Shown here piece by piece: positions 2,990 to 16,465 of a stretch of 16,465 nucleotides of DNA (position 1 is the first letter of the stretch; each line of letters begins with the position of its first letter). This DNA comes from Gracilaria vermiculophylla (lineage: Eukaryota > Rhodophyta > Florideophyceae > Gracilariales > Gracilariaceae), in contig JAHNZQ020000005.1 in NCBI GenBank assembly GCA_019155205.2, forward strand, positions 1 through 16,465, written 5' to 3'. The notes beneath the pieces were generated by a model, which worked only from the letters and a program-made list of their open reading frames with translations, was not told the origin of the DNA and did not search any database. The position numbers were made by a program, and so were the translations under genes.

Positions 2990-3144
2990 ATGAAGAAGTT
3001 GAATATTCTTGGGCTGATACTATTTCTAGGCTCGTTCGTTTATTTTTTTAAAAAGTCGAGAAAATTTCGACAATCGATTGGGGCTGCTATACTAGCTACA
3101 TCTATCCTTGCCTCTGGACCATTAAAATCCGAGGCAAAAGCGCA
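2990..3144 (+). pseudogene. Secretion leader of module 2 toxin gene, separated from its toxin part by a frameshift
   Basis: AGGAG at 2976-2980 stands 9 nt before the ATG. The reading frame gives a hydrophobic segment (residues about 5-20), a basic stretch KKSRKFRQS, a second hydrophobic run (AAILATSILASG) and a signal-peptidase-like EAKA end. The same order is found in module 4 (KFRQSIIAAF... then TTARAAG), so this is a conserved leader for export across a membrane. After about codon 51 the frame continues open to 3469, but that tail is out of frame with the conserved protein. The conserved sequence resumes in the -1 frame from about 3142, near AAAAGCGCAG. This is either a 1-nt deletion, a sequencing error or, less likely, programmed slippage. 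As it stands the leader is not joined to the toxin. Confidence 0.7.
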
Positions 3145-3747
3145 GATGCTTTTACTCCTCAACAACAGACTCCCCATAGTCAGAGGAATAGAGATTCTTT
3201 TAGTCAGGCTACAAAAAAACCAAGCTCAGAAAACCCCAATAATAATGGTTCAGATGGAGGTGGAGATGATGATAAGGGTATGCCACAATGTCCGAAAGTC
3301 GAATCAGTTGAAGAAACAGAAAAGCATCTTGAAAATATTGATGGATACATTAGGCGAATGGAAGAAAGTTCAGATTCAGAGAGTGAAGAAGAGCAGTGTC
3401 CGATTCATGAACAAAAGAAAGGAGGGATTGCTGAATTGCCAGACAGTTCCGAATATATCTATGGTTTAGAAACTAAAACTGCTAAAAAAGCATTAAAAAA
3501 AGTTTGGAAAAATCCGAATGCTCGGCAAGAAGTACTGGAAGCACTAAGTAAAATAGAGAAAGGAGAGCTTCTTCCACGAAATGAAAAAGATTTTAAAGGT
3601 TTTAAAAGCTTAAAAGAACTTAAATTTTCAAATACTCGAATGCTAATGCAACCTGGGAAAGATGGAGAACCTGATAAAATTGTGGTAATATGTATGCGTA
3701 GGGATTTGGACGATTTAGTTCCTAAATTAAGAAAGAAATACGAGTAA
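3142..3747 (+). pseudogene. Linker plus RelE/ParE-like C-terminal toxin domain of module 2 (out of frame with its leader)
   Basis: In this frame the sequence runs through a Gln/Ser/Asn/Gly-rich stretch with acidic residues, then the conserved linker PQCPKVESVEETEKH (from the first in-frame ATG at 3280) and an acidic Ser/Glu stretch. About 90 C-terminal residues follow, with a helix KKALKKVWKNPNARQEV, a KGEL turn, then GFKSLKELKFSNTRML and a strand ending VICMRRD. That helix-helix-strand layout with the xSLxELxF...RxL core resembles RelE/ParE-type mRNA-cleaving or gyrase-directed toxins; I give it as a likely fold, not a proven family. The gene is followed 17 nt later by a small acidic protein. 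If only ATG 3280 is used, a 155-aa protein without signal peptide would be made in the cell that encodes it. Confidence 0.62.
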
Positions 3748-3764
3748 AATAAGGAAATAAAAAT

Positions 3765-4115
3765 ATGAAGATAAAAAGAATTGAGTTTCTCCATGAAATA
3801 ACCAATATCGAGAATGAAAGCGTTGATGTTGCTATTGAGGACGAAAACGGTAATACGTATACAATGGACGTTAGTACTCCGGGAGATTTACAGGATGCAA
3901 TGGAGCAAGAAAAAACAAACTTTATTACACCCGGGGCTCCAAAGATCATCGTCAAAAAACTAACGAAAGAAATTGTTACAGAAGCAATCCAAGCTTATGC
4001 AAAAAATGAAGGTTACTATCTAAAACTTTACCAATTTGCTGATGAAATTGATATTTCTATTTTCAATAAATTAGCAGAGGAAAAACGTGCTTTTTGGGAC
4101 TTTGAAGAGGAATAA
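3765..4115 (+). CDS. Putative immunity/antitoxin protein of module 2
   Basis: 116 aa, acidic, no membrane segment. It starts 17 nt after the toxin stop with an AAGGAA ribosome site upstream, so the pair is probably one operon. Visible parts: an N-terminal strand region (IEFLHEITNIENESVDVAI), an acidic central loop, PGAPKIIVKKLTKE (57-70) and a C-terminal helical region YYLKLYQFADEIDISIFNKL. It does not resemble the colicin-D-type immunity proteins of the other modules. This fits its toxin having a different C-terminal domain. Immunity role is inferred from position, size and charge only. Confidence 0.6.
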   Translation: MKIKRIEFLHEITNIENESVDVAIEDENGNTYTMDVSTPGDLQDAMEQEKTNFITPGAPKIIVKKLTKEIVTEAIQAYAKNEGYYLKLYQFADEIDISIFNKLAEEKRAFWDFEEE

Positions 4116-4117
4116 CA

Positions 4118-4153
4118 AATAAGTAGCTCGAAATATATTTTAAGCTACTTATT
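4118..4153. terminator. Bidirectional hairpin between module 2 and convergent remnant B
   Basis: AATAAGTAGCT (4118-4128) pairs perfectly with AGCTACTTATT (4143-4153), an 11-bp stem with a 14-nt loop, starting 3 nt after the immunity stop. It stands between two convergent reading frames and could end transcription from both sides. Confidence 0.6.
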
Positions 4154-4175
4154 GAAAACTCTAAGAAATGGCTTT

Positions 4176-4410
4176 TTATTCTTTTAGCTGTTGATATAAT
4201 TTTGTTCGTCGAATACTTTTATATTTGATGGAATATCTTTTGGATTGAAATAAACTATTTGGATCTTTACTTTCGTAATACTTCTTCAAAGATATTTTCC
4301 CTTCCGCTTGAAGTTGAAATCCTGTTTTAATAATTTCTATCTTCTCTTCTTGAGGAAGATTCGCTAAAGTGATGAAATTATGGTGATTTAGGCCTTTTTC
4401 TGTATCCAAG
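4176..4410 (-). pseudogene. Remnant (B) of ORF335: C-terminal domain only
   Basis: An open minus-strand frame of 77 codons matching residues about 259-335 of the 335-aa protein (NFITL...EEKIEII..GFQLQAEGKISLKKYYES.DPNSLFQ...SIRRTKLYQQLKE). It has no ATG; the only possible start is TTG. The homology to ORF335 stops at about 4405-4410, where the sequence changes directly into the Ser/Arg-rich part of the module 3 toxin gene on the plus strand. That makes this a recombination junction. The C-terminal domain is well conserved despite truncation, which hints at conservation as DNA rather than as protein. Confidence 0.72.
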
Positions 4411-5127
4411 GATAAACAGACTCCCCATAGTCAGAGGAATAGGGGTCTTTCTAGTCGTGCAGCAAGGAAACCAAGTAATAATGGTAATGGTCCAGGAAAA
4501 CCGAATAATAATGGGTCAGGTGATGACGACGATGATAATGGCGTTCCACAATATCCAAAAGCAGAATCTGTTCAAGAAACAGAGAAACGAATTGAAAATA
4601 TGGATGAATACATTGCTAGAATGGAAGAAAGTTCGGATTCCGAGTCCGATTTTGATGAAGAGCAATGTGAAGTTGGTGAAAAGATAACAAGAGTCGTCTC
4701 TAAAGATAGCAGCATTACAAAAGTATCTTCTTCAACAGTTCGGGATAAAGGTAAGCATATTCCAGAATTTCTTAGTAAGGAACGCTTGAAAGGGGTGTTC
4801 GATGCTAGTAAATTGAAATATCTAAATTACGAAGATCGATTAAAATATTTGCGAAATAGAAACAATTTACCGGACGATGTGGTTTTTGAAGCACAAGATA
4901 AAATTGGAGAATTCTTATCAGCAGATGATACTTTTATAGCTCCGGGTTTTTTAGGATCACGAAAAATCAGAGGTACTGTTTTTATTAATTTAAGATTAAA
5001 CCAGTTCGGTTTTCGAGATGAGGGTTCCAATAAATATCGAACTGGCGGGTATATGAGTGACAAAAAAATTCGAATAGTAGTAAATTCAGGCTTTCATTTA
5101 TTTCCTACAGCAGGTGCCAATAATTAA
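4411..5127 (+). CDS. Orphan toxin of module 3: linker plus C-terminal toxin domain, no leader
   Basis: The DNA from about 4413 is clearly homologous to 3163-3400 of module 2 (shared ACAGACTCCCCATAGTCAG). It encodes the same Ser/Asn/Gly stretch, an Asp run, linker PQYPKAESVQETEKR and an acidic stretch MEESSDSESDFDEEQ. The leader and signal peptide are missing, and the first in-frame ATG is at 4600, inside the linker. The C-terminal domain (about 150 residues) differs from module 2: it has KGKHIPEFLSKERL, a YEDRLKYLRNRNNLP helix, a strand region VFINLRLNQFGFRDEG, then TGGYMSDKKIR and a final GFHLFP. The strand/Gly order and its immunity gene suggest a colicin-D-like fold, but the HA..FG motif is absent and a His-based Ntox-type fold is also possible. 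Likely a silent, swappable cassette. Confidence 0.65.
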   Translation, partial: DKQTPHSQRNRGLSSRAARKPSNNGNGPGKPNNNGSGDDDDDNGVPQYPKAESVQETEKRIENMDEYIARMEESSDSESDFDEEQCEVGEKITRVVSKDSSITKVSSSTVRDKGKHIPEFLSKERLKGVFDASKLKYLNYEDRLKYLRNRNNLPDDVVFEAQDKIGEFLSADDTFIAPGFLGSRKIRGTVFINLRLNQFGFRDEGSNKYRTGGYMSDKKIRIVVNSGFHLFPTAGANN

Positions 5128-5146
5128 ATTATTCTATGAATATTAA

Positions 5147-5632
5147 ATGATGAAACATAATTTAAATCTCGTTCGGTATAAAGAGTTATTAAAAAAAGAA
5201 AAAAATTTAAATCTGGAAAATAAATCATTACTTATTGAAAATAAAGATGAATTCTTAGAATTTCTTTCTTATAACAGCAAATTAGAAAATTCGATATCTT
5301 ATCAGAATAAGGAGAAATATTACTCGTTAATATCTCAATATCTAGATAATTTAATTCCACCGCACTTATTTCAGGGGGAATTTGTAGAATTGGAGCAAAA
5401 AGATGCTAAAGCTGCGAAAATTTTTCTAAATGAGATAAAAGAATCACAGACGTTTTCAATCGGGTTAATAGCGATAAAATTTGGATCGCTGGTTGGTAAA
5501 ATATCTAAATTATCAGATATCGCGAATGAATTTGGCCCCGAGGAAGGTATTAGTAACGAAAACTTTCGGAAATCAATCAAAAAAATTTATTCTGAAATGG
5601 TAGCTTTAGAAAATCAATCGGAAGAAATATAG
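5147..5632 (+). CDS. Immunity-like protein of module 3 (colicin-D-immunity-like C-terminus)
   Basis: 161 aa beginning with two adjacent ATG codons, 19 nt after the orphan toxin. The N-terminal half is Lys/Glu/Asn-rich and helical. The C-terminal half has FGSLVGKI, an acidic EFGPEE, then GISNENFRKSIKKIY. This matches FSKIISGLI...FLTEEEFREVIQ in the protein at 11263-11808 and the LDF...EFR...IY pattern of the other two immunity proteins. I take it as a diverged member of the same family, probably neutralising the neighbouring C-terminal domain. No membrane segment or signal is visible. Confidence 0.6.
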   Translation: MMKHNLNLVRYKELLKKEKNLNLENKSLLIENKDEFLEFLSYNSKLENSISYQNKEKYYSLISQYLDNLIPPHLFQGEFVELEQKDAKAAKIFLNEIKESQTFSIGLIAIKFGSLVGKISKLSDIANEFGPEEGISNENFRKSIKKIYSEMVALENQSEEI

Positions 5633-5664
5633 ATCTAATTGTAAACCTTATCGATAGTAATTCT

Positions 5665-6672
5665 TCACTCTTTTAAACTTTTATAAAGTGGAGTACGTCT
5701 AATACTGTCATATTTGATACTGTAGCCTTTAAGTTGAACTAAACTATTTGGATCTGTGCTTTCATAATAATTCTTCAATGAGATTGTTCCTTGAGCTTGA
5801 AGTTGAAATCCTCTTTGAATGATTTCTATTCGCTCCTGTTCTGAGATTTTTCCTAAAGTAATGAAATTGGATCCATTAAGGCCTTTCTGTTGATTTGAGG
5901 ATATATTATACGGTTGGCTTGGTTTGCTGTCCTTAAAATCGATTTTAGAGGCCTCTGAGAGAGTTTTTGATTCAATATCTTTTCGCCGAGAAGTTGAATC
6001 TCTAATTTCACTACGTACGGCACTTCGTTTCGGATCATTTTCTGGCAAATAAAGCTCCTTTTTTCCTTCCAGGGTATAATGACCCTGCTGAATAGCTTTC
6101 GAGTATTCTAGGGGCTGTGAAGGCTCGCTGGGAGCATATTTTGGATTCTCTAGCTTAGATTCTAATTGAATTATTTTTTGTTGTATTTTTTGTTGAAGTC
6201 TTTCGACTTGCTCCGCTAGAGAATCAACTTGATTTTGAAGAATTTGAATCTTTGCATCCAAACCAGGACTCGAACTCGGGTAAGTAGAGTTGCTAGCTTC
6301 AGTGTATCCAAATAAAAATTGAAGGAGAGCACCTTTTTTGTTTTGTCGAATAATATTTTGGACCTTTCGCCAAAAGAAAGGTTGTAGATTTGTGTCTAAA
6401 ATTTCATAATTGTCTCCGTTTTCAAGAATTTCTAATGCGTAAAGAAAAAAACCTCTGAGAGATCGTATTTTTCGTTGTTTAGAATCTAATTCTTCGATTA
6501 CTTGGGCTACTGAATAAAGAAAATCTATCTGAATGTTTGTTTGTGAAAAGAGAAACAGATAATAATTTTGATCGACTTGAAAATAGGAGTAAAAAATTTT
6601 TTGTTCTTTCAACTGATTAAAAATAGAAGAATCTGGAATTTGTTGTGTTTGAAAAAAGAAAATGTTTTGCAT
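5665..6672 (-). CDS. ORF335: unrecognised coiled-coil protein with a conserved C-terminal domain, source of the dispersed remnants
   Basis: 335 aa with an ATG start and the only full-length copy of this family in the window. Residues 1-125 form an N-terminal domain rich in Phe/Tyr/Gln, with a helical stretch SVAQVIEELDSKQRKIRSLRG (54-74, basic at its end). Residues 138-175 are a clear coiled coil (IQILQNQVDSLAEQVERLQQ and on), so it probably oligomerises. A Pro/Ser/Lys-rich linker covers about 178-260. Residues 262-335 are a compact domain with several predicted helices (ISEQERIEIIQRGFQLQAQG, SLKNYYES, then KGYSIKYDSIRRTPLYKSL), basic enough to bind DNA. I do not recognise a named family; plasmid regulation, partition or recombination are guesses. 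It is convergent with module 3 and divergent from the recombinase-rep operon, and has its own promoter. Confidence 0.75.
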   Translation of the reverse strand: MQNIFFFQTQQIPDSSIFNQLKEQKIFYSYFQVDQNYYLFLFSQTNIQIDFLYSVAQVIEELDSKQRKIRSLRGFFLYALEILENGDNYEILDTNLQPFFWRKVQNIIRQNKKGALLQFLFGYTEASNSTYPSSSPGLDAKIQILQNQVDSLAEQVERLQQKIQQKIIQLESKLENPKYAPSEPSQPLEYSKAIQQGHYTLEGKKELYLPENDPKRSAVRSEIRDSTSRRKDIESKTLSEASKIDFKDSKPSQPYNISSNQQKGLNGSNFITLGKISEQERIEIIQRGFQLQAQGTISLKNYYESTDPNSLVQLKGYSIKYDSIRRTPLYKSLKE

Positions 6673-6708
6673 ATTATTTTGTTTTTGTATTTTTTATAAG
6701 CGTATTTA

Positions 6709-6737
6709 ATTATAAATAATATATGTTAATTTGTAAA
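6709..6737 (-). promoter_or_regulatory. Sigma-70-type promoter for ORF335
   Basis: On the minus strand TTTACA (6732-6737) is followed by a 17-nt spacer and a perfect TATAAT (6709-6714). Transcription would start near 6702, about 30 nt before the ORF335 ATG. The TAAGCGTA motif at 6697-6704 overlaps the expected start point. Confidence 0.65.
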
Positions 6738-6977
6738 GTGTTAACAATGATTTTTTCTACTACAGTTTGTTTAGTATAGTATTATACTCTAAATTAATCT
6801 AATTTAAGCAAATATTTTGTCGTAATTAATCTTGTGGTGTTTAAAAGTAGTATTGGAAAGTTTTAATGGGCGTATTTATATATACGCTTATTTAATAGTA
6901 TAGTTTATATCTATTGTAGAAACTTAATCTAACAATTGAATTCTTTATTTTCTGGTAAAAAGGGGCTATAGGAGGAA

Positions 6978-7085
6978 ATGACGTTCTTTCTGCAAAAAAA
7001 ATCCTTCTTCGAGGTATATAAATTTAGAATATTTACGCTTAAAATAAGTTTATTGTGCATTTTGCCCTGTATTAGAGTGTTTTAA
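6978..7085 (+). CDS. Possible 35-aa peptide with strong ribosome site
   Basis: AGGAGG at 6970-6975 precedes ATG 6978 by only 2 nt, and an open frame of 35 codons ends with TAA at 7083-7085. The product is basic at first and hydrophobic towards the end (LKISLLCILPCI). The TACGCTTA motif lies inside the frame. The tight spacing and small size leave doubt; it may be a chance purine run. Confidence 0.22.
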   Translation: MTFFLQKKSFFEVYKFRIFTLKISLLCILPCIRVF

Positions 7086-7250
7086 ATGTAAGAATATGAG
7101 TTATTTGTAGAAAGTTTAGAGTCGTACTTATGTATTAAGCGTAATTAATATTTATTAAGATTAATTATCCGTAAGTGTTATATATTGTTTGTTTGGGGTA
7201 AATCTATTAAAACCTCAGTTTTTTGTTTTTTAAATTAATATTTTTAGGTC

Positions 7251-7279
7251 TTGACAAATAAAACCCTTTTAAGTAGTAT
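7251..7279 (+). promoter_or_regulatory. Sigma-70-type promoter of the recombinase-rep operon
   Basis: TTGACA (7251-7256), a 17-nt spacer and TAGTAT (7274-7279). It is followed by AGGAG at 7300-7304, four nucleotides before ATG 7309. The consensus -35 and ideal spacing predict strong transcription by a bacterial-type (plastid-encoded) RNA polymerase. Confidence 0.75.
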
Positions 7280-7308
7280 AAAAAACAAAAATAGTGAATA
7301 GGAGAAAA

Positions 7309-7965
7309 ATGTTTGAAGAAATTCCTAAAAATTGTAGATATGGTTACATTCGAGTAAGTTCTCAATCACAAGAAGAAAATTCTTCTTTAGAATCCCAGAA
7401 AGAAGAATTAATGAAATTCGGGGTTCCAGAAAAAAACATTCGGCTGGAAGTTGGATCTGCGACTGATAAAATTGAAGAACGACCAGTTTTTTATCATCTG
7501 ATTAATGATGAGTTAAAAGAGAAGAATTTATTAGTTGTGACTAAAATCGATCGTTGCAGTCGAAATACTTTGGAGTTTTTGAAATTGCAAGAGAAACTTT
7601 TTAAAAATAAAGTTACTTTTCTATCTTTAGATTTGCCTTATTCAAGTGATATGGCAGTAAACAAATTAATTGCAACGAATCTTGCTGCAATTGCTACTTT
7701 TGAAACTGAACGACGGAAGGAGCGTCAGCGTCAGGGTATTGAAGCAGCTCGAAAAGCCGGTAAATATTTAGGTCGTAAAACAGTAATTACAAAAAAATTA
7801 ATTGCTGAAGTTCAAGATTTGAAAGAAAATAAGAATTTGTCAATCACTCAAATTGCAAAAATAACAGGGAAAGGTCGTAATACAATTTATAAAGTTTTGA
7901 AAAAAGAATTAAATTATATTCCATACAATCGATTAGTCAAAAATATTAACAATGATAAGAAATGA
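7309..7965 (+). CDS. Serine site-specific recombinase (resolvase/invertase family)
   Basis: 218 aa from ATG 7309, chosen because AGGAG (7300-7304) is well placed before it; the frame is also open from a GTG at 7294. The catalytic domain has YGYIRVSSQS (11-20) with nucleophile Ser17, KIDRCSRNT (79-87) with the conserved Asp-Arg and a second Arg, and the long E-helix FETERRKERQRQGIEAARKAG (131-151). The C-terminal helix-turn-helix is SITQIAKITGKGRNTIYKVL (178-197). Length and order fit the small Hin/gamma-delta resolvase type, which cuts DNA through a Ser-DNA link and recombines short sites as a tetramer. It overlaps rep by 4 nt (ATGA), so the two are translationally coupled. Diatom plasmid and plastid recombinases of about 218 aa are the closest relatives I recall. 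Probable role: resolving plasmid multimers or integrating the plasmid. Confidence 0.95.
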   Translation: MFEEIPKNCRYGYIRVSSQSQEENSSLESQKEELMKFGVPEKNIRLEVGSATDKIEERPVFYHLINDELKEKNLLVVTKIDRCSRNTLEFLKLQEKLFKNKVTFLSLDLPYSSDMAVNKLIATNLAAIATFETERRKERQRQGIEAARKAGKYLGRKTVITKKLIAEVQDLKENKNLSITQIAKITGKGRNTIYKVLKKELNYIPYNRLVKNINNDKK

Positions 7966-9410
7966 AACAATTTACTTTTGAGAAAGAAAACTTCCAACCT
8001 GATTATATCGCTTTTAAATTCGAAGTATTAGATTGGTACGATCGAAAACAGATTTTAGGTTATTTGTTTAAGATTGGATTTAATACGTATTCTGGGCTCC
8101 CTCCTAAAGCGAACGAGATTCGAACTGATCCGAAAAAAAAATTCAAAATCTATGTCACTGAAAATATCCCAGGCTGGGATGGAACAGTTTTACATTTTAC
8201 TGGAAAGAATGCGAAATATTTTTATGATTTAGTGAAAGGAATGCACGTTGAATGGCCATTTTACCAGGACGCAACTTTGACTCGATTTGATCTTGCTTTT
8301 TGTCGCTATCATAAAAAAACTGACAAGATTTCTGCCTCAGAATTTCTTTTTATGTGCTTCGAAAAAATAAAAACTACTCATCGAAAAGTTATTATGGAAA
8401 AAAATAAGTCGGGTCTTATCGAACGAATAGGGCATCGAAAAAATAATCGGTACTATCGCATCTATGAAGATACCGAAAATCGAAACTTTTTAAAGTTTGA
8501 ATATGAATTGAAATATAAAGCCTTGGTGGGATATCAAGATTTAGTAGTTTTAAACCAATACCAACAATTCGAGCATCAACTTTCTTTTGAATTTATAAAC
8601 CAATTTGCGAAATTATTACCTCTGCAGTATTCTTATATGGATTGGCTAGTTTATCGAGTACGGCCATTCAGAAAACGATCAAAAAAATTGCCTCAGAAAG
8701 CATTTCACACAGATTATATAGTTAATAGAACTTTCAGCAAATATAGTGAGCGGAAAAGTTTTTGGGATTTGTTACAATTTTTAGATTACATTCAACAGTT
8801 AAGTTATCAAACGGATCATCTTCGCGATATTCAGTACAGATTGGTTAACTTTCCGGTTCAGGATTTCTTAATTTATAAAAACCAATCAAAAAACAGTTAT
8901 CAAATGAAAAAAGCACGTGAATTTTTTGACCAACTACAAACTAATTCATTGATTCAATATTTCTCTAAGAATTATTACCGTAGCTTAATTACAATCCCAA
9001 ACGTTGAACTATATAGAGGCAAACAGAATACATTGATGGCAGAAGTTTGGATAGCTGAAGAGTTATTTTATTATGCTTATCCGTTTTTATTTCCAGACTT
9101 TATTCGACAAAAAGTTACTAAGCATCAATTTGAAGTTCAGTTTTACGTTATTCAAATTTTTACTTCAGTCAATTTGGAGAAAACTTTTTTTATCAAAGAG
9201 TATTTTCAAAATTACTCATCCGCTTTAAACAATTCTCAAAAGACCGAGATTAAGAATTATTTTATTCAACTTATTCAAAGGTTAGAAGAGTATAATCTAA
9301 TAGAATCTAACTTTAAGATTCTTCAAGATGGTAATTTTTTCAAGACTCCTGAATTAACTTCTAAAAATATTAATGAAGGTTTTGTTATCTATGAAAAGCT
9401 CAATATTTAA
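7962..9410 (+). CDS. Plasmid replication initiator, pT181/Rep_trans-like (ORF482 type)
   Basis: 482 aa, start ATG overlapping the recombinase stop (ATGA). Landmarks in order: an N-terminal strand region (DYIAFKFEVL, 14-23), LTRFDLAFCRY (106-116) corresponding to the RxDxA metal/DNA motif of rolling-circle Reps, and NRYYRIYED (162-170) followed by LKFEYELKYK (177-186). The last pair closely follows the RxxRIYxK...xVEIELK signature of staphylococcal pT181-family Reps, so the nicking Tyr is probably Tyr168 or Tyr165. The C-terminal 250 residues are aromatic-rich and not recognised. Known small Reps of this family nick the double-strand origin to start rolling-circle replication. The length equals the 482-codon ORF I recall from diatom plasmids. 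Intact copy; a second one ends at position 72. Confidence 0.8.
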   Translation: MKQFTFEKENFQPDYIAFKFEVLDWYDRKQILGYLFKIGFNTYSGLPPKANEIRTDPKKKFKIYVTENIPGWDGTVLHFTGKNAKYFYDLVKGMHVEWPFYQDATLTRFDLAFCRYHKKTDKISASEFLFMCFEKIKTTHRKVIMEKNKSGLIERIGHRKNNRYYRIYEDTENRNFLKFEYELKYKALVGYQDLVVLNQYQQFEHQLSFEFINQFAKLLPLQYSYMDWLVYRVRPFRKRSKKLPQKAFHTDYIVNRTFSKYSERKSFWDLLQFLDYIQQLSYQTDHLRDIQYRLVNFPVQDFLIYKNQSKNSYQMKKAREFFDQLQTNSLIQYFSKNYYRSLITIPNVELYRGKQNTLMAEVWIAEELFYYAYPFLFPDFIRQKVTKHQFEVQFYVIQIFTSVNLEKTFFIKEYFQNYSSALNNSQKTEIKNYFIQLIQRLEEYNLIESNFKILQDGNFFKTPELTSKNINEGFVIYEKLNI

Positions 9411-10113: not shown

Positions 10114-10169
10114 CCAGATTAGATACGTTTGAAATAATTATAAAACTAATAATTAAGAATATTTTCTCC

Positions 10170-10209
10170 GTTCACCTAGGGTTGACTATGTTCATCTAGG
10201 GTTGACTAT
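10170..10209. repeat. Two tandem 20-bp iteron-like repeats
   Basis: GTTCACCTAGGGTTGACTAT at 10170-10189 is followed directly by GTTCATCTAGGGTTGACTAT at 10190-10209, with one difference. Two 20-bp direct repeats about one to two helical turns long resemble iterons or operator sites bound by a plasmid Rep or regulator. TTGACT in each copy also resembles a -35 box. Confidence 0.7.
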
Positions 10210-10276
10210 ACTGTTGCCAAAAATAAAAATAGATTAAATTAGGTTAAAATAGATTAAAATAAGAAAAAGTTGTTAA

Positions 10277-10399
10277 TCAAGAAAGAATTTGTCGGCCACT
10301 CAAATAGAGAAAGTGACAGGGAAAGGTCGGAATACAATTTATAAAGTTTTGAAAGAAGAATTAAATTATATTCGATACAATCTACTAAAACTAAAATAA
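10277..10399 (+). pseudogene. C-terminal remnant of a second serine recombinase
   Basis: In frame up to TAA 10397-10399 the segment encodes TQIEKVTGKGRNTIYKVLKE followed by ELNYIRYN. It matches the helix-turn-helix and tail of the recombinase at 7309-7965 nearly residue for residue, and the DNA is clearly homologous. A TAA stands directly before it and the catalytic domain is missing. No rep gene follows. This is the scar of another plasmid unit, broken or replaced. Confidence 0.85.
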
Positions 10400-10456
10400 A
10401 TATTTTAGTTTTTCGAGTACAATGAGTATTACTAAATATTAAATGGTACAAAAAAG

Positions 10457-10567
10457 ATGCCAAAACCAAACGACTCTGATAATAATAATAATAATAATAA
10501 TGATTCTGAAAATAGTAAGTTTGAATTTAATTCGAGTCAAAACTTTTATTATGAAAAGAAAAAGTGA
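10457..10567 (+). CDS. Possible 36-aa Asn-rich peptide containing an (AAT)7 run
   Basis: ATG 10457 opens a 36-codon frame ending TGA 10565-10567. Seven AAT codons in a row (10481-10501) give an Asn run. The TGA lies in a small hairpin, TGACAT/ATGTCA, followed by TTTTT, as happens at the end of the module 1 immunity gene. No ribosome site is evident. It could be coding or simply a microsatellite in decayed DNA. Confidence 0.25.
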   Translation: MPKPNDSDNNNNNNNDSENSKFEFNSSQNFYYEKKK

Positions 10568-10686
10568 CATCTTAATGTCAGATTTTTGAATAGGTCATAA
10601 TATTTATAAATAGCTCAGAAAACAAGTAACAAAAGGGTTTTGTAGAATTTGAAGTTTTAAAAATTTTTAAAAAATATAAGATTGGA

Positions 10687-10703
10687 ATGTGTTCTAAACA
10701 CAT
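10687..10703. promoter_or_regulatory. Palindrome upstream of the 173-aa ORF
   Basis: ATGTGTT (10687-10693) and AACACAT (10697-10703) form a 7-bp palindrome with a 3-nt centre, ending 41 nt before ATG 10745. It could be an operator or a leader hairpin. I see no clear promoter between 10568 and 10745. Confidence 0.3.
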
Positions 10704-10744
10704 GATACATTGTTTAAAAAATCAGTAAATAAAATTTAACTTTT

Positions 10745-11266
10745 ATGGCTTCGAAAAGTTTTAAATCAATTTTAAAATCTTTAAAAAATTTTGCGATTGC
10801 TTGTTTTTTTGGTTGGTTAATATTCTCTCCGGTCCCTGGAAAAAATACTAAGCAATCAAAGCAATCTATTGAAAAAATACTATCGATTACCGGTGGTTCC
10901 GTGGATAATTTAGATGAAAAAAAATTTCTAAGAGAAATGTTAGCGAAACATTTTCCTGATTGGGAAGCAAGAGTATCTATAGAGAATCAAGAAGCTAGAA
11001 TTTATTATAAGGCGACACGAAGACTAAAAGAGTATAAAAAATCTCATCCTTTGTTAAAAATCCCTGAAAACTGGCTAACGGATGAAGAAAAGTCTGCGAT
11101 AAATTATTTTCATGGAAGGGGGGACTACAAAAAATATCAAGATCCTAAAGTTTCCCCAAATTTATTTGATACTAGGAAAACTTTCTTAAAGAAGATGGAA
11201 GAGAAAGAAATGCGTGAAAAATTTTTAGAAAATTATAATCGACTGAATCCTATCAAAGAAAACTAA
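10745..11266 (+). CDS. Unrecognised 173-aa protein with N-terminal membrane anchor or signal
   Basis: A basic N-terminus is followed by a hydrophobic segment at about 15-29 (NFAIACFFGWLIFSP), then a soluble, strongly charged region: LDEKKFLREMLAKHFPDWEA (56-75), an Arg/Lys-rich helix near 85-100, EEKSAINYFHGRGDYKKY (114-131) and a Lys/Glu-rich C-terminal helix. I recognise no family and no linker of the kind found in the toxin genes. It converges with, and overlaps by 4 nt, a minus-strand immunity-like gene. A leader plus short charged C-terminal part beside an immunity gene could make it a toxin-like effector, but the opposite orientation argues against a normal pair. Confidence 0.6.
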   Translation: MASKSFKSILKSLKNFAIACFFGWLIFSPVPGKNTKQSKQSIEKILSITGGSVDNLDEKKFLREMLAKHFPDWEARVSIENQEARIYYKATRRLKEYKKSHPLLKIPENWLTDEEKSAINYFHGRGDYKKYQDPKVSPNLFDTRKTFLKKMEEKEMREKFLENYNRLNPIKEN

Positions 11267-11808
11267 CTTTCGTTGATGAAGTATTTTTCTACTTTCATCA
11301 ACGAATTTTGAATTACTTCTCGGAACTCTTCTTCGGTCAAAAAACTTTCTTCAGGATCTGCATCGAATCCTTCTAAAAAAGGTATTAGACCTGAAATAAT
11401 TTTAGAAAATCCAAAACTTTTTGGGTCTAATTCAATGTTTGCCTGACGTCTGAATTCCTCTTTTAAATCCCGGGCTTCATTCACGTTAGATAAACTTGGA
11501 TATAAAAACTCCGCCACAAAGTCTATAGTACTTAATTCATACGCAACAAACTTTCGCATGCGTTCGCGATAATATTGACGGGATTCCCAAAAAGGATAAT
11601 CTGTTAGTAATTGCTTATAATCTTCAACTTGATTATATTGGCACGATCGACACCAATCAAGTACTTTTAAAGAGAACTTGATTAATGTATTTTTACTTTT
11701 TGGATATTTTCTTTTCAAATAACTATGAGCTTCGAACAGAAAATATGAAAATTCCAATGATTCTATTAATTTCTCCCGGCTTTTTGGGAAAATGTTAAAA
11801 ATATTCAT
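11263..11808 (-). CDS. Lone colicin-D-immunity-like protein without an intact toxin
   Basis: 181 aa. The N-terminal part is helical and aromatic (SLEFSYFLFEAHSYLKRKY). The C-terminal 100 residues contain LSTIDFVAEFLYPS, a helix ARDLKEEFRRQ, SFGFSKIISGLI, acidic FDADPEES and FLTEEEFREVIQ. The series matches the plan of the three other immunity proteins and of colicin D immunity proteins. In those modules the toxin lies directly upstream; here the upstream DNA (11841-12010 minus) holds only a frame with stops. The gene may persist because it protects against toxins made by related elements. Its 3' end overlaps the 173-aa ORF on the other strand. Confidence 0.62.
   Translation of the reverse strand: MNIFNIFPKSREKLIESLEFSYFLFEAHSYLKRKYPKSKNTLIKFSLKVLDWCRSCQYNQVEDYKQLLTDYPFWESRQYYRERMRKFVAYELSTIDFVAEFLYPSLSNVNEARDLKEEFRRQANIELDPKSFGFSKIISGLIPFLEGFDADPEESFLTEEEFREVIQNSLMKVEKYFINES
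11269..11305 (+). terminator. 12-bp hairpin ending the 173-aa ORF, inside the convergent gene
   Basis: TTCGTTGATGAA (11269-11280) pairs perfectly with TTCATCAACGAA (11294-11305) and is followed by TTTTG. It starts 3 nt after the plus-strand TAA and lies within the last codons of the minus-strand gene. It would serve as a plus-strand terminator while being translated on the other strand. Confidence 0.5.
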
Positions 11809-11840
11809 AGAAAGTTATTTATTACTTTTAATTTGGATAA

Positions 11841-12010
11841 TTATAATTCGTTATTGTTATTGCTCAGATCAGTGATTACTTTTACCTCTGGCTGTTCCAA
11901 CATTCTTGGAATATCGGCCGGATCGAAGCTTGCACCTGACTATAACTTACCATCTTGTTTGCCACCTTTGTGAAAATATAAATTTGAAACTGTAGAGATC
12001 CTAGCTTATA
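11841..12010 (-). pseudogene. Possible remnant of the partner upstream of the lone immunity gene
   Basis: The minus strand reads FDPADIPRMLEQPEVKVITD and ends in TAA (11841-11843) 32 nt before the immunity ATG, a spacing like that of the real toxin-immunity pairs. Upstream in the same frame come YFHKGGKQDGK and two in-frame stops, so no complete gene exists. The segment reads like protein but I cannot name it. Parts of it are richer in G and C than the surroundings. Confidence 0.33.
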
Positions 12011-12056
12011 TCGGTTCGAAACCTTATCTATTTTTTTAATTTACAATAATAATATT

Positions 12057-12542
12057 ATGCTAATAGTCAAACCTGTTCACAAACGATATGCTTTTAATAA
12101 TTTGACATCAACCGATTATACTGATCTTGCTTGTAAATATTCTACATGCAAACGTTATGGCTTTCGAGGTATTGTTGCTTTCGCAACGGGTACTGGAACT
12201 CTTGGAGTTGTTAAGTCGTTATTAAAAGGCCATCTTGTCCAATATGGTAAACGACGAGTCGTTGGTGTATTCTTAACTGGTGTCACTTACACTTGTGCAC
12301 CTGCAATCGCGGTCTTAACAAACGCTACTCGTGTTGTCCGATGTTGCAAGGTCGTTTTCAATGTTGTTGGTTGGGGACTTGAAGCTGCTGAGGATATCGG
12401 CACTCTTGTTTTTCTTCCTGTCGACCTTGCTTTATTCGGCCAACCAATTCCAACTGGGAAATCTAATAGATTTAGCGACTGGGACAGAATTGAAGATATT
12501 ATTGCCGAATTACCTGGAACAAACATAACAATAGATGAATAA
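12057..12542 (+). CDS. Unrecognised 161-aa Cys-containing membrane protein with atypical composition
   Basis: Three hydrophobic stretches are visible: about 38-56 (GIVAFATGTGTLGVVKSLL), 66-88 (RVVGVFLTGVTYTCAPAIAVL) and 98-130 (VVFNVVGW, then LVFLPVDLALFGQPIP). Six Cys occur at 26, 31, 80, 96 and 97 region, including a CC pair and C-x4-C. The tail (DWDRIEDIIAELPGT) is soluble and acidic. Codon choice (CTT, GTC, GGT, ACT, CGT) and higher G+C differ from the neighbours, so it may have come from another source. It is followed by a 12-bp hairpin and then a convergent ORF335 remnant, the same 3' setting as the toxin/immunity modules. A small membrane-active toxin, an immunity protein and an unrelated gene are all possible. 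Confidence 0.55.
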   Translation: MLIVKPVHKRYAFNNLTSTDYTDLACKYSTCKRYGFRGIVAFATGTGTLGVVKSLLKGHLVQYGKRRVVGVFLTGVTYTCAPAIAVLTNATRVVRCCKVVFNVVGWGLEAAEDIGTLVFLPVDLALFGQPIPTGKSNRFSDWDRIEDIIAELPGTNITIDE

Positions 12543-12601
12543 TAAGGTAAAATTTCGAACCTATTGACCCAAAATTAGCTGATATTGAACAAGTTAATGA
12601 T

Positions 12602-12635
12602 TTTTGGAAAAGTGACAAAAATAACTTTTCCAAAA
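12602..12635 (+). terminator. 12-bp hairpin after the 161-aa ORF
   Basis: TTTTGGAAAAGT (12602-12613) pairs perfectly with ACTTTTCCAAAA (12624-12635) around a 10-nt loop, 60 nt after the stop. The remaining spacer to 12761 has a short G+C-rich patch near 12703-12736 but no gene. Confidence 0.55.
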
Positions 12636-12761
12636 CCAATAATCTTACTCATTTAACATTAAAATCCAACAGGCTCTCAAACGTCCTTCAAAAACTTTAG
12701 ATGTCCTCTCCAAAGGACGGCGCTGTCGCTTCGGTATAATACATTTAAGTTTTTTATTCTT

Positions 12762-13260
12762 TTAGATTTTGATTTTTAGATTTGAATAAAGTTTGGTTCT
12801 TCGTATGCTTTCATATTTGATACTGTAGCCTTTAAGTTGAAATAAGCTATTTGGATCTTTACTTTCGTAATACTTCTTCAATGAAATTGTTCCTTGAGCT
12901 TGAAGTTGAAAACCTAATTTAATAATTTCAATCTTTGCATCTTCTGAAATCTTTCCCAAAGTGACGAAATTTTGCCGATTACGCCCTTTCTCTTCATTCG
13001 AGGATATATTCTGACTATGAGAAAGTGTCTTAAAACCGATTTTAGAGTCCTCTGAGAAGCTTTTTGATTCGAGATCTTTTGTCTGATAAGCTGGGTTTCT
13101 GATTTGATTCTCATTTTGTGTCAAATAAGGCCCCTTTTTTTCGTTGATAGTAGAATTCCTTGCTGACTAATCTTCGACGATTTTAGAGGCTGTGAAGGCC
13201 AGCTGAGAGCATACTTTTGGTTTTATACTAGCATTTCCTTCGGTTATTTTTTATCCAAAA
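12762..13260 (-). pseudogene. Remnant (D) of ORF335: C-terminal half
   Basis: The last 120 codons are open (TTG is the only start) and match residues about 215-335 of the 335-aa protein, including SKSFSEDSKIGFK, NFVTLGKISEDAKIEII and SLFQLKGYSIKYESIRRTKLY. Further upstream on the minus strand, to about 13215 and perhaps 13260, DNA similarity continues (AGTATGCTCTCAGC against AATATGCTCCCAGC) but stops and shifts break the frame. The N-terminal domain is missing. It converges on the 161-aa ORF. Confidence 0.75.
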
Positions 13261-13316
13261 TTTTTTATAATCTTTTTGATACTATTCACAAAAACAATCT
13301 TTCGAAACGTATTCAA

Positions 13317-13736
13317 TTGAGGAAAAAATTACATTTGAAAAATCTAATAAAAACGATTATTGCTTTTTGTTGGAAGTCTATTCAAAATTGGCTTCTACGC
13401 ATTTTGCAAAAATCTTTGTTACTCACGACCACAATCGATCGGTTAATGACAGCCATCCAAATTTTTTTAAACAAATTTTTCAAATACCCTTTCAGATTTA
13501 AACGCAATTTTCGTCTCTTCAAGATTCTACTGGACATTTTTATGGAAATTTTTCTAGTATTTTGTTCCTTCATGAATGAATGTTTATTTTTTAATCATAT
13601 AATAAAATGGCTGAGTCAGTGCCGAAATATTATGCGATTTTTAATGAAAGAATACCTATGCATAACTTATGCTTTATACTTCATTCTTCTAGGTCTTTTT
13701 GGCATATTGGTCGGTTTTTTATTAGGTATCTATTGA
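13317..13736 (+). CDS. Putative basic membrane protein, uncertain start
   Basis: An open frame of 139 codons from TTG 13317, open even further upstream; the first ATG is at 13446. The product is strongly basic and hydrophobic (FKYPFRFKRNFRLFKILLDIFMEIFLVFCSF) and ends in a clear membrane segment, YALYFILLGLFGILVGFLLGIY without its last residues forming a tail. No ribosome site or family is recognised. AT-rich DNA easily gives Phe/Ile/Leu-rich chance frames, so I rate this about even. It lies between two ORF335 remnants, together with the next ORF. Confidence 0.4.
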   Translation: MRKKLHLKNLIKTIIAFCWKSIQNWLLRILQKSLLLTTTIDRLMTAIQIFLNKFFKYPFRFKRNFRLFKILLDIFMEIFLVFCSFMNECLFFNHIIKWLSQCRNIMRFLMKEYLCITYALYFILLGLFGILVGFLLGIY

Positions 13737-13805
13737 CACAAGTATAAGAATGAGAATGAACAGATAAGCCCCATATATCTATTAATTTTATTACTTTTAT
13801 TAAAC

Positions 13806-14072
13806 ATGCTTTATAATCACGGATTCGATTATGGTTTATTGCGTAATTTATACAATTCATCTCTAGCATCTAACATTGCGGATCCATTTGAGGAATTTTC
13901 TTTCGGACCTTTACCACAAATTGAGAGTCGTCCATTCAAACTCATTTTAAAAGAGCCAGAAAAAATACCTCAGATTCCATTCCCAATTTTGGATGATCCA
14001 TCTGTAAATGTTGAGATTGATTTTATTTGGGATGAGGATGAGTCATTCGAATATAAGTTTGAATTATTTTAA
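13806..14072 (+). CDS. Unrecognised 88-aa acidic protein
   Basis: ATG start and soluble, acidic product with a Pro-rich middle (LKEPEKIPQIPFPILDDP) and an Asp/Glu/Phe-rich end (IDFIWDEDESFEYKFELF). It follows the membrane ORF by 70 nt. A basic hydrophobic protein followed by a small acidic one has the look of an effector/neutraliser pair, but nothing in the sequence proves it. Codon bias is in keeping with real genes of the window. Confidence 0.45.
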   Translation: MLYNHGFDYGLLRNLYNSSLASNIADPFEEFSFGPLPQIESRPFKLILKEPEKIPQIPFPILDDPSVNVEIDFIWDEDESFEYKFELF

Positions 14073-14311
14073 TTCTATCAAACTCTAAGTGAGAAAGTCA
14101 AACATTAGGTTTTTATATGCTTTTGTTTACTTGATCCTAAACCTTTTGTAGTTAATTCAAATTATAAGGGTGATCGATTCATGGAAAAGCTAATTCTTTT
14201 AATTCACATATAAATCACTTCTTATAGAACATTTTTTTATACTATACCCCAGATGAATAGTAAGTACGAGTCGAAAGGAATTCAATATTTTTATGGAAGG
14301 GTCATAAGATT
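14073..14311. other. Spacer without recognisable feature
   Basis: AT-rich; a weak inverted pair AGGTTT/AAACCT lies near 14108-14144. I see no gene, promoter or strong hairpin. Confidence 0.4.
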
Positions 14312-14803
14312 CAAATATGCTCTCAGCGACATCTTAAGGGGTCTAGAATGGAGATAAATTTGTTTTAGGTATGATTCTACCCTGAAGAGTGAAAAGGCGC
14401 CTTATTTGACAGAAAATGGTAGTGAAGTTAGAGATTCAACTTCTCGGGGAAAAGATATGGAATCAAAAAGCTTCTCAGAGGCTCCTAGAAGCCCCTTTTA
14501 GCCACTTTCAGGAAGTCAGCAGTAAATATATCCTCTGCTTCGCAAATCCCGAAATTGAAACCAATTTCGGCAAATCAAGAGAAAGGCCTTAATCAGCCAA
14601 ATTTCATCACTTTAGGAAAGATTTCAGAGCAGGAGAGAGGCGAAATTATTCAAACTGGATTCCAACGACAAGCTGAGGGAAAGATTTCATTGAATAAATA
14701 TTATGAAAGTACCCAAACAGATAGCTTATTTCAATTGAAAGGATATTCCCTTAAATTTGAAAGCATACGACGCACAAAATTATATCAACAATTGAAACCG
14801 TAA
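14312..14803 (+). pseudogene. Remnant (E) of ORF335: C-terminal half
   Basis: Similarity to the ORF335 gene begins at about 14312 (AATATGCTCTCAGCG, equivalent to residues 178 and on), the same part of the gene where remnant D becomes recognisable. It runs to the TAA at 14801-14803. The middle contains stops and shifts (after SKSFSEAPRSPF, for example), while the last 82 codons are open from a TTG: NQPNFITLGKISEQERGEII, then SLFQLKGYSLKFESIRRTKLY. No ATG start. It converges on the module 4 immunity gene. Confidence 0.78.
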
Positions 14804-14810
14804 AATAACT

Positions 14811-14868
14811 AGGAGGAGAAATGTCTTCTGAGAGGTCTATATTAGTCGATTTAAGACCACTTTGGTGA
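14811..14868 (+). promoter_or_regulatory. Consensus ribosome site followed by a 15-codon frame
   Basis: AGGAGG (14811-14816) stands 4 nt before ATG 14821, ideal spacing, but the frame ends at TGA 14866-14868 after 15 codons. It looks like the start of a gene whose body was lost when the flanking DNA was rearranged, or a short leader peptide. Confidence 0.35.
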
Positions 14869-14933
14869 CTGAGTAGGGTTTCACGATGAAGATAGCATAT
14901 TTCATTAATATGTCATCGTCATCAGTGAAAATA

Positions 14934-14983
14934 AATAAATTATTTTATTAAAATTACAACCCTGGTTAATAAAATAATTTATT
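14934..14983. terminator. Long 18-bp inverted repeat between remnant E and module 4
   Basis: AATAAATTATTTTATTAA (14934-14951) is the exact reverse complement of 14966-14983, with a 14-nt loop containing ACAACCCTGG. The right arm includes the stop codon of the minus-strand immunity gene. It is the strongest palindrome of the window and fits a 3'-end structure for module 4. Confidence 0.65.
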
Positions 14984-15488
14984 CTTTCAGAAGGTTTTGT
15001 ATTTGAAGATAAATTGTTTGAACTAAATCTCGAAATTCCTTTTTTTCTCTTTCCCGAATTTCAAGAGATTCTGGATCAGGATCGTAACCATAACAAGCTT
15101 CCAATATTTCATCAGTTAATTTTGAAAAATCTAATGATTTTTTATGAGGTGATAAAAGAATGAAATTGGATTCCAACATATCTGCTGCTTCACTGTTTAA
15201 TACATCTCTTTCAGAGAATGCTTGGCAAAACTCCCCAATAGTTATTTTATTTTTGAGAAATTTTTCTTGCAACTGTAAAAAATACTCCCGTGTTTCCCAA
15301 TTTAATTGCTCCTGCAATAAAGCTGAATAACGCGAAAGTTCAAGAGCTTCTTCACTTTCGTCAATAGAGAGTGATTTTAATTCTTCTGAACGCTTTAAGA
15401 GTTCCAGATGACGTTCTTTTTGATAATTCGATAATATGCGACGTTTATCTTGTTCTATTTTATTTAATTTTTGATTCAAATTGTTCAT
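14979..15488 (-). CDS. Colicin-D-immunity-like protein, module 4
   Basis: 169 aa, soluble. Its ATG lies inside the end of the toxin gene (29-nt overlap), so toxin and immunity translation are coupled. It aligns with the module 1 immunity protein: YQKERHLELLKR near the N-terminus, an EQLNWETREYFLQLQEKFLK helix, KITIGEFCQAFSERD, LSPHKKSLDF, a YGYDPDPES acidic stretch and EFRDLVQTIYLQIQNLL at the end. The KIxxxEFxxxFxER pattern followed by a Tyr-Asp/Pro acidic loop is the colicin D immunity arrangement. Both toxins with this immunity subtype carry colicin-D-like domains, which supports the assignment. The gene ends in an 18-bp inverted repeat. Confidence 0.72.
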   Translation of the reverse strand: MNNLNQKLNKIEQDKRRILSNYQKERHLELLKRSEELKSLSIDESEEALELSRYSALLQEQLNWETREYFLQLQEKFLKNKITIGEFCQAFSERDVLNSEAADMLESNFILLSPHKKSLDFSKLTDEILEACYGYDPDPESLEIREREKKEFRDLVQTIYLQIQNLLKE

Positions 15489-16465
15489 AAAATTTTTCGT
15501 TGCTTGAGTTATTACCTAGTGTCCCACCACCTGTTCCCATATTCCCAGATTCTTTTACTTGATTCATATATTTTTTTCCTCTTTTACCTAAAGTAATCAT
15601 ATCACCATTATTTTGGCTGTCATCAAAAACAACAATAGCTGAGCTTTTGCCTGATTTTGACATATTCTGATTTTCGTAAATAGAGATTGGAGTTTTGCAA
15701 TTATGAGTATAAGATTTATCAATAAGTAAGCGGGTTTGAGGTTCTAAACAGATATCTTTTAAAAGATGTTGATAGTCTTTTAAAAAAGACGATGGCGGTA
15801 ATGGATAACCTTTCTGTAAATATTGATATAATCCCATTCCGCGAATTAAAGTGACATGTTCAGCTTTCATACCATAATCTACAGGGTTTAATCCGATTTC
15901 TGGAGCGTGTGGAGTTTTTTTAGCAGCCATCAATCCGCTGATATGATGTTGCTCATTGACATTTAACCTTTCTGGTACATTCGTTTCAGCGTATTTTTTC
16001 GCTTCTTCATATGTTCTAATATCAGGTAATTCTAACGCTTCCTTAACAGTTACCGCAGATGGATATTCTGCAAAATCATCTTCACTTTCACTTTCTGTAC
16101 CTGAATCGCTCACCTCGCTCATTTGGCGAAGGTGGTCGTCAATCCTTTCAACTCGTTCTTCTGTTTTTTCGACTGATTCTGTTTGCGGAAATTGTGGCAA
16201 ACCATCTCTGTCTGAATCAGAACCAAAATCATCAGGTTTTCCTGGCCCTGAACCATCATTGCTTGATCTACCACTAAAGAAACCTGAACGATGACTAGGA
16301 CGACTCTGATATTGTGGTTGTGGTGTAAAAGCATCAGTTTCACCTGCTGCACGAGCTGTTGTCAGGCCTGAGAAAAAGAAAGTTGCAGCCGCAAAGGCAG
16401 CAATGATTGATTGCCGAAATTTACCACTAGTTTTATAGTAATAGATAAATAAACCTAAAAATGTT
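15460..16465 (-). CDS. Polymorphic toxin, intact leader and colicin-D-like C-terminal domain; start lies beyond the window
   Basis: The frame is open from the window end to TAA 15460-15462. It encodes a hydrophobic segment, KTSGKFRQSIIAAFAAATFF and a signal-peptidase-like TTARAAG, then a Gln/Ser/Arg stretch (about 16345-16260) and a Gly/Asp-rich stretch. The linker PQFPQTESVEKTEERVERID follows from 16200, then an acidic Ser/Glu stretch. The toxin domain (about 15930-15530) has PHAPEIGLN, with His codon 15907-15909 as candidate catalytic residue, then FLKDYQHLLKDI, an IYENQN...SAIVVFDD strand pair and a final ESGNMG, as in the module 1 toxin. A 24-residue tail follows. The likely reaction is tRNA anticodon-loop cleavage, inferred from fold only. 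This is the one copy where leader, linker, toxin and immunity all stand in frame. Confidence 0.75.
   Translation of the reverse strand, partial: TFLGLFIYYYKTSGKFRQSIIAAFAAATFFFSGLTTARAAGETDAFTPQPQYQSRPSHRSGFFSGRSSNDGSGPGKPDDFGSDSDRDGLPQFPQTESVEKTEERVERIDDHLRQMSEVSDSGTESESEDDFAEYPSAVTVKEALELPDIRTYEEAKKYAETNVPERLNVNEQHHISGLMAAKKTPHAPEIGLNPVDYGMKAEHVTLIRGMGLYQYLQKGYPLPPSSFLKDYQHLLKDICLEPQTRLLIDKSYTHNCKTPISIYENQNMSKSGKSSAIVVFDDSQNNGDMITLGKRGKKYMNQVKESGNMGTGGGTLGNNSSNEKFYEQFESKIK

What the first reader, a model, noticed from the sequence alone, without database searches (positions are those of the whole stretch)
2990..16465. Polymorphic toxin-immunity system in a plastid-plasmid-type setting
Three genes (2990, 4411, 15460 minus) share leader-adjacent sequence and a linker PQxPxxESV..TE followed by an acidic Ser/Glu stretch, yet their C-terminal domains differ, and each is followed within 20 nt (or overlapped) by an immunity-like gene. 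This is the defining layout of bacterial polymorphic toxins. I know of no description of such a system beside the recombinase/rep genes typical of diatom chloroplast plasmids.
Basis: partly seen in the sequence, partly recalled or inferred. Interest (0 to 1): 0.92.

Follow-up and report, generated by a model that had tools for sequence, protein, structure and literature searches.

The report
Toxin–immunity arsenal in diatom plastid DNA
A diatom's chloroplast DNA carries a set of bacterial-style toxin genes with a shared front end and interchangeable killing ends, each followed by its own antidote-like gene, a kind of weapon system known from bacteria for which we found no report in a chloroplast.

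The parts
   Evidence: Pfam Colicin_D E 0.0013, 19.4 bits, below cut-off 25; joins colicin D class 1 by BLAST; His of the colicin D active site kept; hydrophobic segment
1756..2247 (+). immunity gene of module 1, Colicin_immun superfamily
   Evidence: 42% identical to 14979-15488; hhalign against the plastid colicin-immunity-type profile E 4e-20
2531..2604 (+). remnant of the shared downstream repeat
   Evidence: blastn
2990..3469 (+). ORF holding the common leader of module 2; its frame differs from that of the linker and toxin
   Evidence: ORF list; leader match C19:3002-3127 and linker match C19:3118-3396 in different frames
3280..3747 (+). linker plus C-terminal toxin domain of module 2, RelE-superfamily fold
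3765..4115 (+). immunity-like gene of module 2 (ImmA family)
   Evidence: 143 homologues; homologues follow the RelE-group toxins at C19:92232, C19:96394 and C2:130449; no relation to the colicin-immunity-type profile (E 0.61)
4182..4415 (+). copy of the shared downstream repeat (3' part of the ORF family of 5665-6672, opposite strand)
   Evidence: blastn, repeats
4415..5127 (+). orphan tail cassette: linker plus colicin D-fold C-terminal domain, no leader (module 3; first ATG of the frame at 4600)
5147..5632 (+). immunity gene of module 3, Colicin_immun superfamily
   Evidence: hhalign E 1e-16; 37% identical to C19:101214-101690, which follows the same toxin class
5665..6672 (-). ORF whose 3' part is the dispersed repeat found downstream of about half of the immunity-type genes
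7294..7965 (+). serine recombinase (SerC / pCf ORF217-218 type)
   Evidence: Pfam Resolvase 3e-27
7962..9410 (+). 482 aa plasmid-type ORF beside the recombinase (pCf1 ORF482 / pCf2 ORF484 type by position and length)
   Evidence: no meaningful Pfam or PHROGs match; three further relatives on the contig; plasmid layout from PMC2873285 passages
11263..11808 (-). orphan Colicin_immun-like gene
   Evidence: hhalign E 8e-13
12774..13012 (+). copy of the shared repeat
14571..14790 (-). copy of the shared repeat downstream of the immunity gene of module 4
14979..15488 (-). immunity gene of module 4, Colicin_immun superfamily, overlapping the toxin gene by 29 nt
15460..16465 (-). toxin gene of module 4, open from leader through linker to a colicin D-type C-terminal domain; start codon lies beyond the window
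   Evidence: 70 homologues, P0001 98% identical with its own start; leader DNA 98.99% identical over 197 nt to C19:100388-100584 and no further; motif elements KK, HAPE, TLGK

Best explanation
This is a family of plastid-encoded polymorphic toxin-immunity modules carried on plasmid-type insertions in diatom plastid genomes. SHOWN by sequence: one leader (two hydrophobic segments) and linker (GPGKP..PQxPxxESV..TE, then an acidic stretch) is joined to interchangeable C-terminal domains, and each module's immunity-type gene lies directly downstream; leaderless tail cassettes also occur. SUPPORTED by fold, profile and active-site motif: the C-terminal domains in the window are RNases of the Barnase-EndoU-ColicinE5/D-RelE (BECR) type, namely colicin D-like tRNases (296, 4411, 15460) and a RelE-like RNase (2990); the partners are colicin-immunity-type proteins for the first group and a separate ImmA family for the second. 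INFERRED: the leader puts the toxin in or across a bacterial-type (Sec/thylakoid) membrane; when the toxin reaches a stroma without the matching immunity protein it cleaves bacterial-type tRNA or ribosome-bound mRNA and stops plastid translation; carriers are protected. The benefit goes to the plastid haplotype or plasmid that carries the pair, for example where plastids or plasmids of different origin meet. New specificities would arise by swapping the tail cassette through the shared leader/linker upstream and the shared repeat downstream.
Confidence: 0.72

Rival explanations
1. Addiction only: the modules are plain toxin-antitoxin pairs that keep a plastid plasmid from being lost, acting inside one plastid, with no export and no competition between plastids.
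For: They lie beside a recombinase and a plasmid-type ORF; the 2990 toxin domain is of the RelE fold, typical of type II toxin-antitoxin pairs; the immunity-type genes are open frames in 8 of 8 modules where the whole gene can be read.
Against: Addiction does not need a membrane leader (48 of 48 testable leaders have two hydrophobic segments at a lenient threshold) nor diversification of the C-terminus on a constant front end; immunity genes lie downstream and those of the colicin D group are of colicin-immunity type, unlike usual antitoxins.
Confidence: 0.2
2. Decaying remains: bacterial toxin loci entered diatom plastids by horizontal transfer and now have no function.
For: 2990 is frame-broken, 4411 lacks a leader, the C2 copy is degraded; orphan immunity-like genes occur.
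Against: Open toxin frames at 296, 86269, 92232, 96394 and 121173, and at 15460 and 100386 as far as they can be read; active-site His invariant in 15 diverged domains; 99.2% DNA identity of an immunity gene between plastids whose sampled core protein genes are 78-91% identical; 70 and 143 environmental relatives, with leader core and linker both present in one open frame in 46 of 81 toxin relatives.
Confidence: 0.13
3. Weapon or defence outward: the toxins act on bacteria, parasites or phage-like invaders of the plastid rather than on rival plastids or plasmids.
For: Targets of colicin D- and RelE-type RNases (recalled: bacterial-type tRNA-Arg, ribosome-bound mRNA) exist in bacteria too; export-like leader.
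Against: Export from a plastid with four membranes has no known route for plastid-encoded proteins (recalled); no defence family matched for eight window proteins (PADLOC).
Confidence: 0.08
4. Assembly artefact: bacterial toxin loci joined to a plastid contig by mistake.
Against: The colicin D/immunity pair at 121173-121915 lies 0.3 kb from psaB and 3 kb from rbcS; leader DNA is shared within the contig; a second plastid-like contig carries the same family; leader and ImmA were not found in GTDB genomes by pattern scans.
Confidence: 0.02

Closest known systems
Bacterial polymorphic toxin systems (Zhang et al. 2012, PMC3482391)
   Same: Constant N-terminal part with interchangeable C-terminal toxin domain, immunity gene directly adjacent, BECR-fold RNase toxins and a colicin D motif (passages); leaderless tail cassettes as known from bacterial systems (recalled)
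   Different: Lies in a plastid genome; leader is short with no recognised secretion-system domain; RelE-type ends recur, whereas Zhang et al. saw RelE as a polymorphic toxin end only once (passage); plastid and chloroplast do not occur in the held part of the text
Colicin D and its immunity protein (PF11429/PF09204; PDB 1v74, 1tfo, 5znm)
   Same: Catalytic domain fold and motif, immunity family, toxin gene next to immunity gene
   Different: No colicin receptor-binding or translocation domains were identified; most plastid versions are strongly diverged and, of those scanned on the contig, only two pass Pfam's Colicin_D cut-off
Type II toxin-antitoxin RelE/YafQ/HigB toxins
   Same: Fold of the 2990 C-terminal domain
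   Different: Here the domain is the tail of a larger leader-bearing protein and the partner gene, with no known domain, lies downstream
Diatom plastid plasmids pCf1/pCf2 and the plasmid-derived plastid insertions of Kryptoperidinium foliaceum and Haslea silbo (PMC2873285, PMC8070900)
   Same: Serine recombinase genes and ~480 aa ORFs, plasmid-derived DNA in a plastid genome among many unexplained ORFs
   Different: No toxin or immunity genes are mentioned in the passages read; their unexplained ORFs were not available for comparison here

Membership tests
Polymorphic toxin system | Homologues alike at the N-terminus but with different C-terminal domains | tested here: met
Polymorphic toxin system | Small immunity gene directly next to the toxin gene | tested here: met
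   All nine toxin-type genes on the contig; family assignment
Polymorphic toxin system | C-terminal domain is a toxin domain | tested here: met
   By fold or family:
Polymorphic toxin system | Recognised trafficking (secretion) domain | tested here: inconclusive
   Two hydrophobic segments in 48 of 48 testable leaders at a lenient threshold, no known secretion domain
Polymorphic toxin system | Toxin kills, partner protects | not testable with these tools
   Needs experiment
Colicin D tRNase (PF11429) | Score above Pfam cut-off | tested here: not met
   For the window proteins: 296 scores 19.4 against 25; the 15460 domain and the 4600-5127 ORF have no match. Met for C19:121173 (52.7) and C19:86269 (32.7)
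Colicin D tRNase (PF11429) | Motif [KH]K, Hxx[ED], [TS]xxK (from Zhang 2012) | tested here: met
   15460: KK, HAPE, TLGK; C19:121173: KK, HSGD, SGWK; incomplete in 296 (HAVC) and 4411 (DK, TGGY) (read by eye)
Colicin D tRNase (PF11429) | Catalytic-domain fold | tested here: met
RelBE-type toxin-antitoxin system | RelE-superfamily toxin fold | tested here: met
RelBE-type toxin-antitoxin system | Stand-alone toxin with an antitoxin gene, usually upstream and DNA-binding | tested here: not met
   The toxin domain is a tail behind a leader/linker in relatives such as P0048 and P0050; the partner is downstream and has no known domain
pCf-type diatom plastid plasmid | Serine recombinase next to a ~482 aa ORF in plastid DNA | tested here: met
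   direct comparison with pCf sequences was not possible

The most novel reading that the evidence does not exclude
Plastid genomes themselves wage toxin warfare: diatom plastids carry an exchangeable, exported arsenal of colicin- and RelE-type RNases with matching immunity genes, spread by plastid plasmids, which decides which plastid or plasmid lineage survives when different plastids meet. This would be an organelle-encoded counterpart of bacterial polymorphic toxin competition.
Probability: 0.38. Interest if true: 0.96.

Novelty: new variant of a known kind. Interest (0 to 1): 0.87.

Why it matters
Organelle genomes are usually seen as stripped of conflict genes. A polymorphic toxin-immunity family in diatom plastids would make competition between organelles, and the persistence and spread of plastid plasmids, directly testable with known enzymes and antidotes. 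It offers a possible identity for some of the unexplained ORFs reported in plasmid-derived plastid insertions, supplies many new colicin D- and RelE-type RNases with their candidate inhibitors, and provides markers that could affect plastid inheritance in diatoms.

Tried and rejected
Pfam, NCBIfam and PADLOC gave no direct family for most window proteins. Scans of IMG/VR and of GTDB contigs for the leader/linker and for the ImmA family, of IMG/VR for the 482 aa ORF, and tblastn of PLSDB for P0001 and ImmA found no relative; the contig scans depend on short peptide patterns, so they are weak evidence of absence. A profile of the leader family (A1) and one of the 4411 class (A5) found no meaningful PDB sequence match; only fold comparison showed colicin D. 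The plastid colicin immunity protein C19:121529 found no PDB sequence match. Considered and rejected: bacterial contaminant; a relation between ImmA and the colicin-immunity type (hhalign E 0.61). A programmed frameshift at 2990 could not be tested. Left out of the 10-of-10 pairing count: C2:96066-96494 (looks like colicin D by eye, no Pfam match); C2:54434 (tail assigned only by alignment and motif, no Pfam match; its partner is of the colicin-immunity type, E 3e-19, so it would agree); C2:6229 (restriction-enzyme-like tail, other partner type). One search printed a chance figure for an 11-module tally that I no longer use. Papers: the listings showed no report of polymorphic toxins in plastids; only listings were seen except for passages of PMC2873285, PMC3482391, PMC8070900 and PMC6608930; the library lacks most subscription journals.
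Full report
WHERE THE WINDOW LIES. The window is G000:C19:1-16465, identical base for base to the start of a 202,106-bp contig. C19 carries a diatom-type plastid gene set: among others rbcL, rbcS, psbA, psaA, psaB, atp and rpo genes, a long ribosomal protein cluster, tufA, groEL, dnaK, ftsH, tatC and 25 tRNA genes (gene names from reading the translations). Its RbcL is closest in the PDB to 7yk5, 5mz2, 5n9z and 5oya (that these are diatom enzymes is recalled). The assembly holds four rbcL copies (C19, C2, C17, C20), so it looks like a mixture. C2 (497,724 bp) is plastid-like in the two 10-kb places read (one of them with 3,195 withheld bases), and its RbcL is 96% identical to that of C19. Three stretches of C19 are withheld, including 16466-34451 next to the window.

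THE OBSERVATION. At the DNA level the 2990 and 4411 cassettes agree at about 0.7-0.9 per 30 nt from 3170 to 3400, after which agreement falls to about 0.4; 15460 joins them more weakly over the same linker. The three C-termini fall in different BLAST classes, and the three following ORFs start 17 nt, 19 nt and -29 nt from the toxin stop. Corrections: the 2990 leader and the linker-plus-toxin part lie in different frames; 4411 has no leader; 15460 is open throughout but its start is withheld; the module at 296-2247 was not listed. Within the contig, the leader of 15460 and that of C19:100386 are 98.99% identical over 197 nt and then diverge, an abrupt front/tail boundary.

POLYMORPHISM. A search with the 15460 protein found 70 relatives among 2157 candidates. 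By best local alignment 52 of 70 share only the front (leader and linker, at times a little more), 9 only the tail and 9 nearly the whole length (table); a few of the 52 are truncated proteins with the same tail (for example P0013, P0016). In the 81 proteins, the leader core was found in 51, the linker in 59 and both in 46. Of the 59 linker-bearing proteins, 53 had a tail of 60 aa or more. With 11 tails from C19 and C2 these make 64 tails in 10 single-linkage classes, six of them with three or more members, all six present on linker-bearing proteins; C2:6229 puts a seventh, restriction-enzyme-like tail on the linker. The linker pattern is short, so a few of the 59 (for example P0011) may be chance pattern hits. 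The same tail also occurs behind other leaders (P0011, P0012, P0014, P0015; P0195, P0197, P0198).

THE IMMUNITY GENES. I compared with a profile (A7) of five plastid colicin-immunity-type proteins, three of which pass Pfam's Colicin_immun cut-off and two of which have no such match. Against it, 1756/14979 score E 4e-20, 5147/101214 E 1e-16 and the orphan 11263 E 8e-13; the ImmA family of 3765 does not match (E 0.61) and serves as a contrast. Pairing is consistent: RelE-group tails (3280, C19:92232, C19:96394, C2:130449) go with ImmA, and colicin D-group tails (296, 4411, 15460, C19:86269, C19:100386, C19:121173) go with colicin-immunity-type genes, 10 of 10 modules where both sides were assigned. 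These modules share ancestry, so they are not independent trials. Two cases were forecasts that held. The immunity gene at C19:101214 had been matched to 5147 before its tail was read and found to be of the 4411 class. The class 3 gene C19:96394 turned out to be followed after 5 nt by a frame, cut off by withheld sequence, that matches ImmA (E 2.7e-18) and not the colicin-immunity type (E 0.91). C2:54434 agrees (partner E 3e-19), but its tail is assigned by motif only. The restriction-like tail on C2 lies next to a pentapeptide-repeat-like gene (by eye).

MOBILITY AND CASSETTE STRUCTURE. The 2990-type tail and its ImmA gene on C2 are 95.0% (337 nt) and 99.2% (265 nt) identical to C19, while thiG, ccsA, psaC, rbcS and rbcL stretches of the same contigs are 78-91% identical (short tRNA stretches are 96-100%). 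This points to recent transfer, though the C2 copy is degraded. The window also carries a serine recombinase (Resolvase 3e-27) followed by a 482 aa ORF, the kinds of gene found on pCf1/pCf2 (PMC2873285 passages); Haslea silbo plastids have a 32-kb insertion with 28 non-conserved ORFs, and similar plasmids (PMC8070900 passages). A repeat, the 3' part of the ORF 5665-6672 family, occurs at 13 places on C19; 7 of 13 immunity-type genes, including 6 of 8 modules with readable downstream DNA, have it in the same orientation within 300 nt downstream, against 1.15% of random positions. Tail cassettes thus often lie between two shared sequences, which could serve for homologous exchange. The repeat may instead simply mark copies of one ancestral plasmid.

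MECHANISM. Shown: layout, recombined fronts and tails, consistent pairing. Supported: RNase tails of colicin D and RelE type. Inferred: membrane passage by the two-segment leader (48 of 48 testable relatives at a lenient threshold; fewer segments in some C19 genes at a strict one), attack on plastid-type tRNA or mRNA, protection by the partner, and selection through competition between plastids or plasmids. I rate the identity as a polymorphic toxin-immunity family at about 0.9, working toxins at about 0.7, and competition between plastids or plasmids as the main role at about 0.4-0.5.

NOVELTY. The leader was not found in GTDB contigs, IMG/VR or PLSDB, nor was ImmA (the contig scans rest on short patterns). 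Paper searches combining polymorphic toxin, colicin, toxin-antitoxin or immunity protein with plastid, chloroplast, diatom or plastome terms listed no report of such a system, and the held part of Zhang 2012 (first 300,000 of 357,715 characters) has no occurrence of plastid or chloroplast. Published diatom plastid ORFs could not be compared here, so members may already sit unrecognised in GenBank. The kind of system is known; the organellar setting, the leader and the repeated RelE-type tails make it a new variant.

Noticed in passing
G000:C2 (497,724 bp): A second plastid-like contig more than twice the size of the largest diatom plastid genome named in a 2021 abstract (216,580 bp, PMC8268801, listing), with a single rbcL match; either a greatly expanded plastid genome or an assembly artefact.
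   Followed up: partly
C19:124571-129762 (-): A 608 aa reverse-transcriptase-like ORF (125034-126860) lies between two psaA-like parts. Haslea silbo has a psaA group II intron with an RT ORF named orf608 (PMC8070900 passages), so the plastid may belong to a Haslea relative. Read by eye.
   Followed up: no
C19:193027-193883 (-): Two overlapping small genes, the first with a HECAERHHE stretch; could be a further toxin-immunity pair of another kind, no Pfam support.
   Followed up: partly
C2:5601-8043 (-): Linker-bearing restriction-enzyme-like tail next to pentapeptide-repeat-like genes, perhaps a third toxin-immunity pairing type (by eye).
   Followed up: partly
window 10745-11266 (+): 173 aa ORF with an N-terminal hydrophobic stretch whose end overlaps the orphan immunity gene 11263-11808(-) tail to tail; no meaningful family match.
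   Followed up: no
window 12057-12542 (+): 161 aa hydrophobic ORF in the stretch of higher G+C, no meaningful family match.
   Followed up: no
window 10265-10387 (+): Remnant of the serine recombinase gene (10283-10387 is 88% identical to 7831-7935).
   Followed up: no
C19:174061-177709: A 565 aa reverse-transcriptase-like ORF (175355-177052) lies between petB-like and petD-like genes, probably a group II intron (read by eye).
   Followed up: no
C19:66159-66617(-), 79244-79516(-), 197199-197573(-), 197697-198119(+): Further immunity-like genes of both families without an obvious toxin gene beside them (79244 by eye only).
   Followed up: partly
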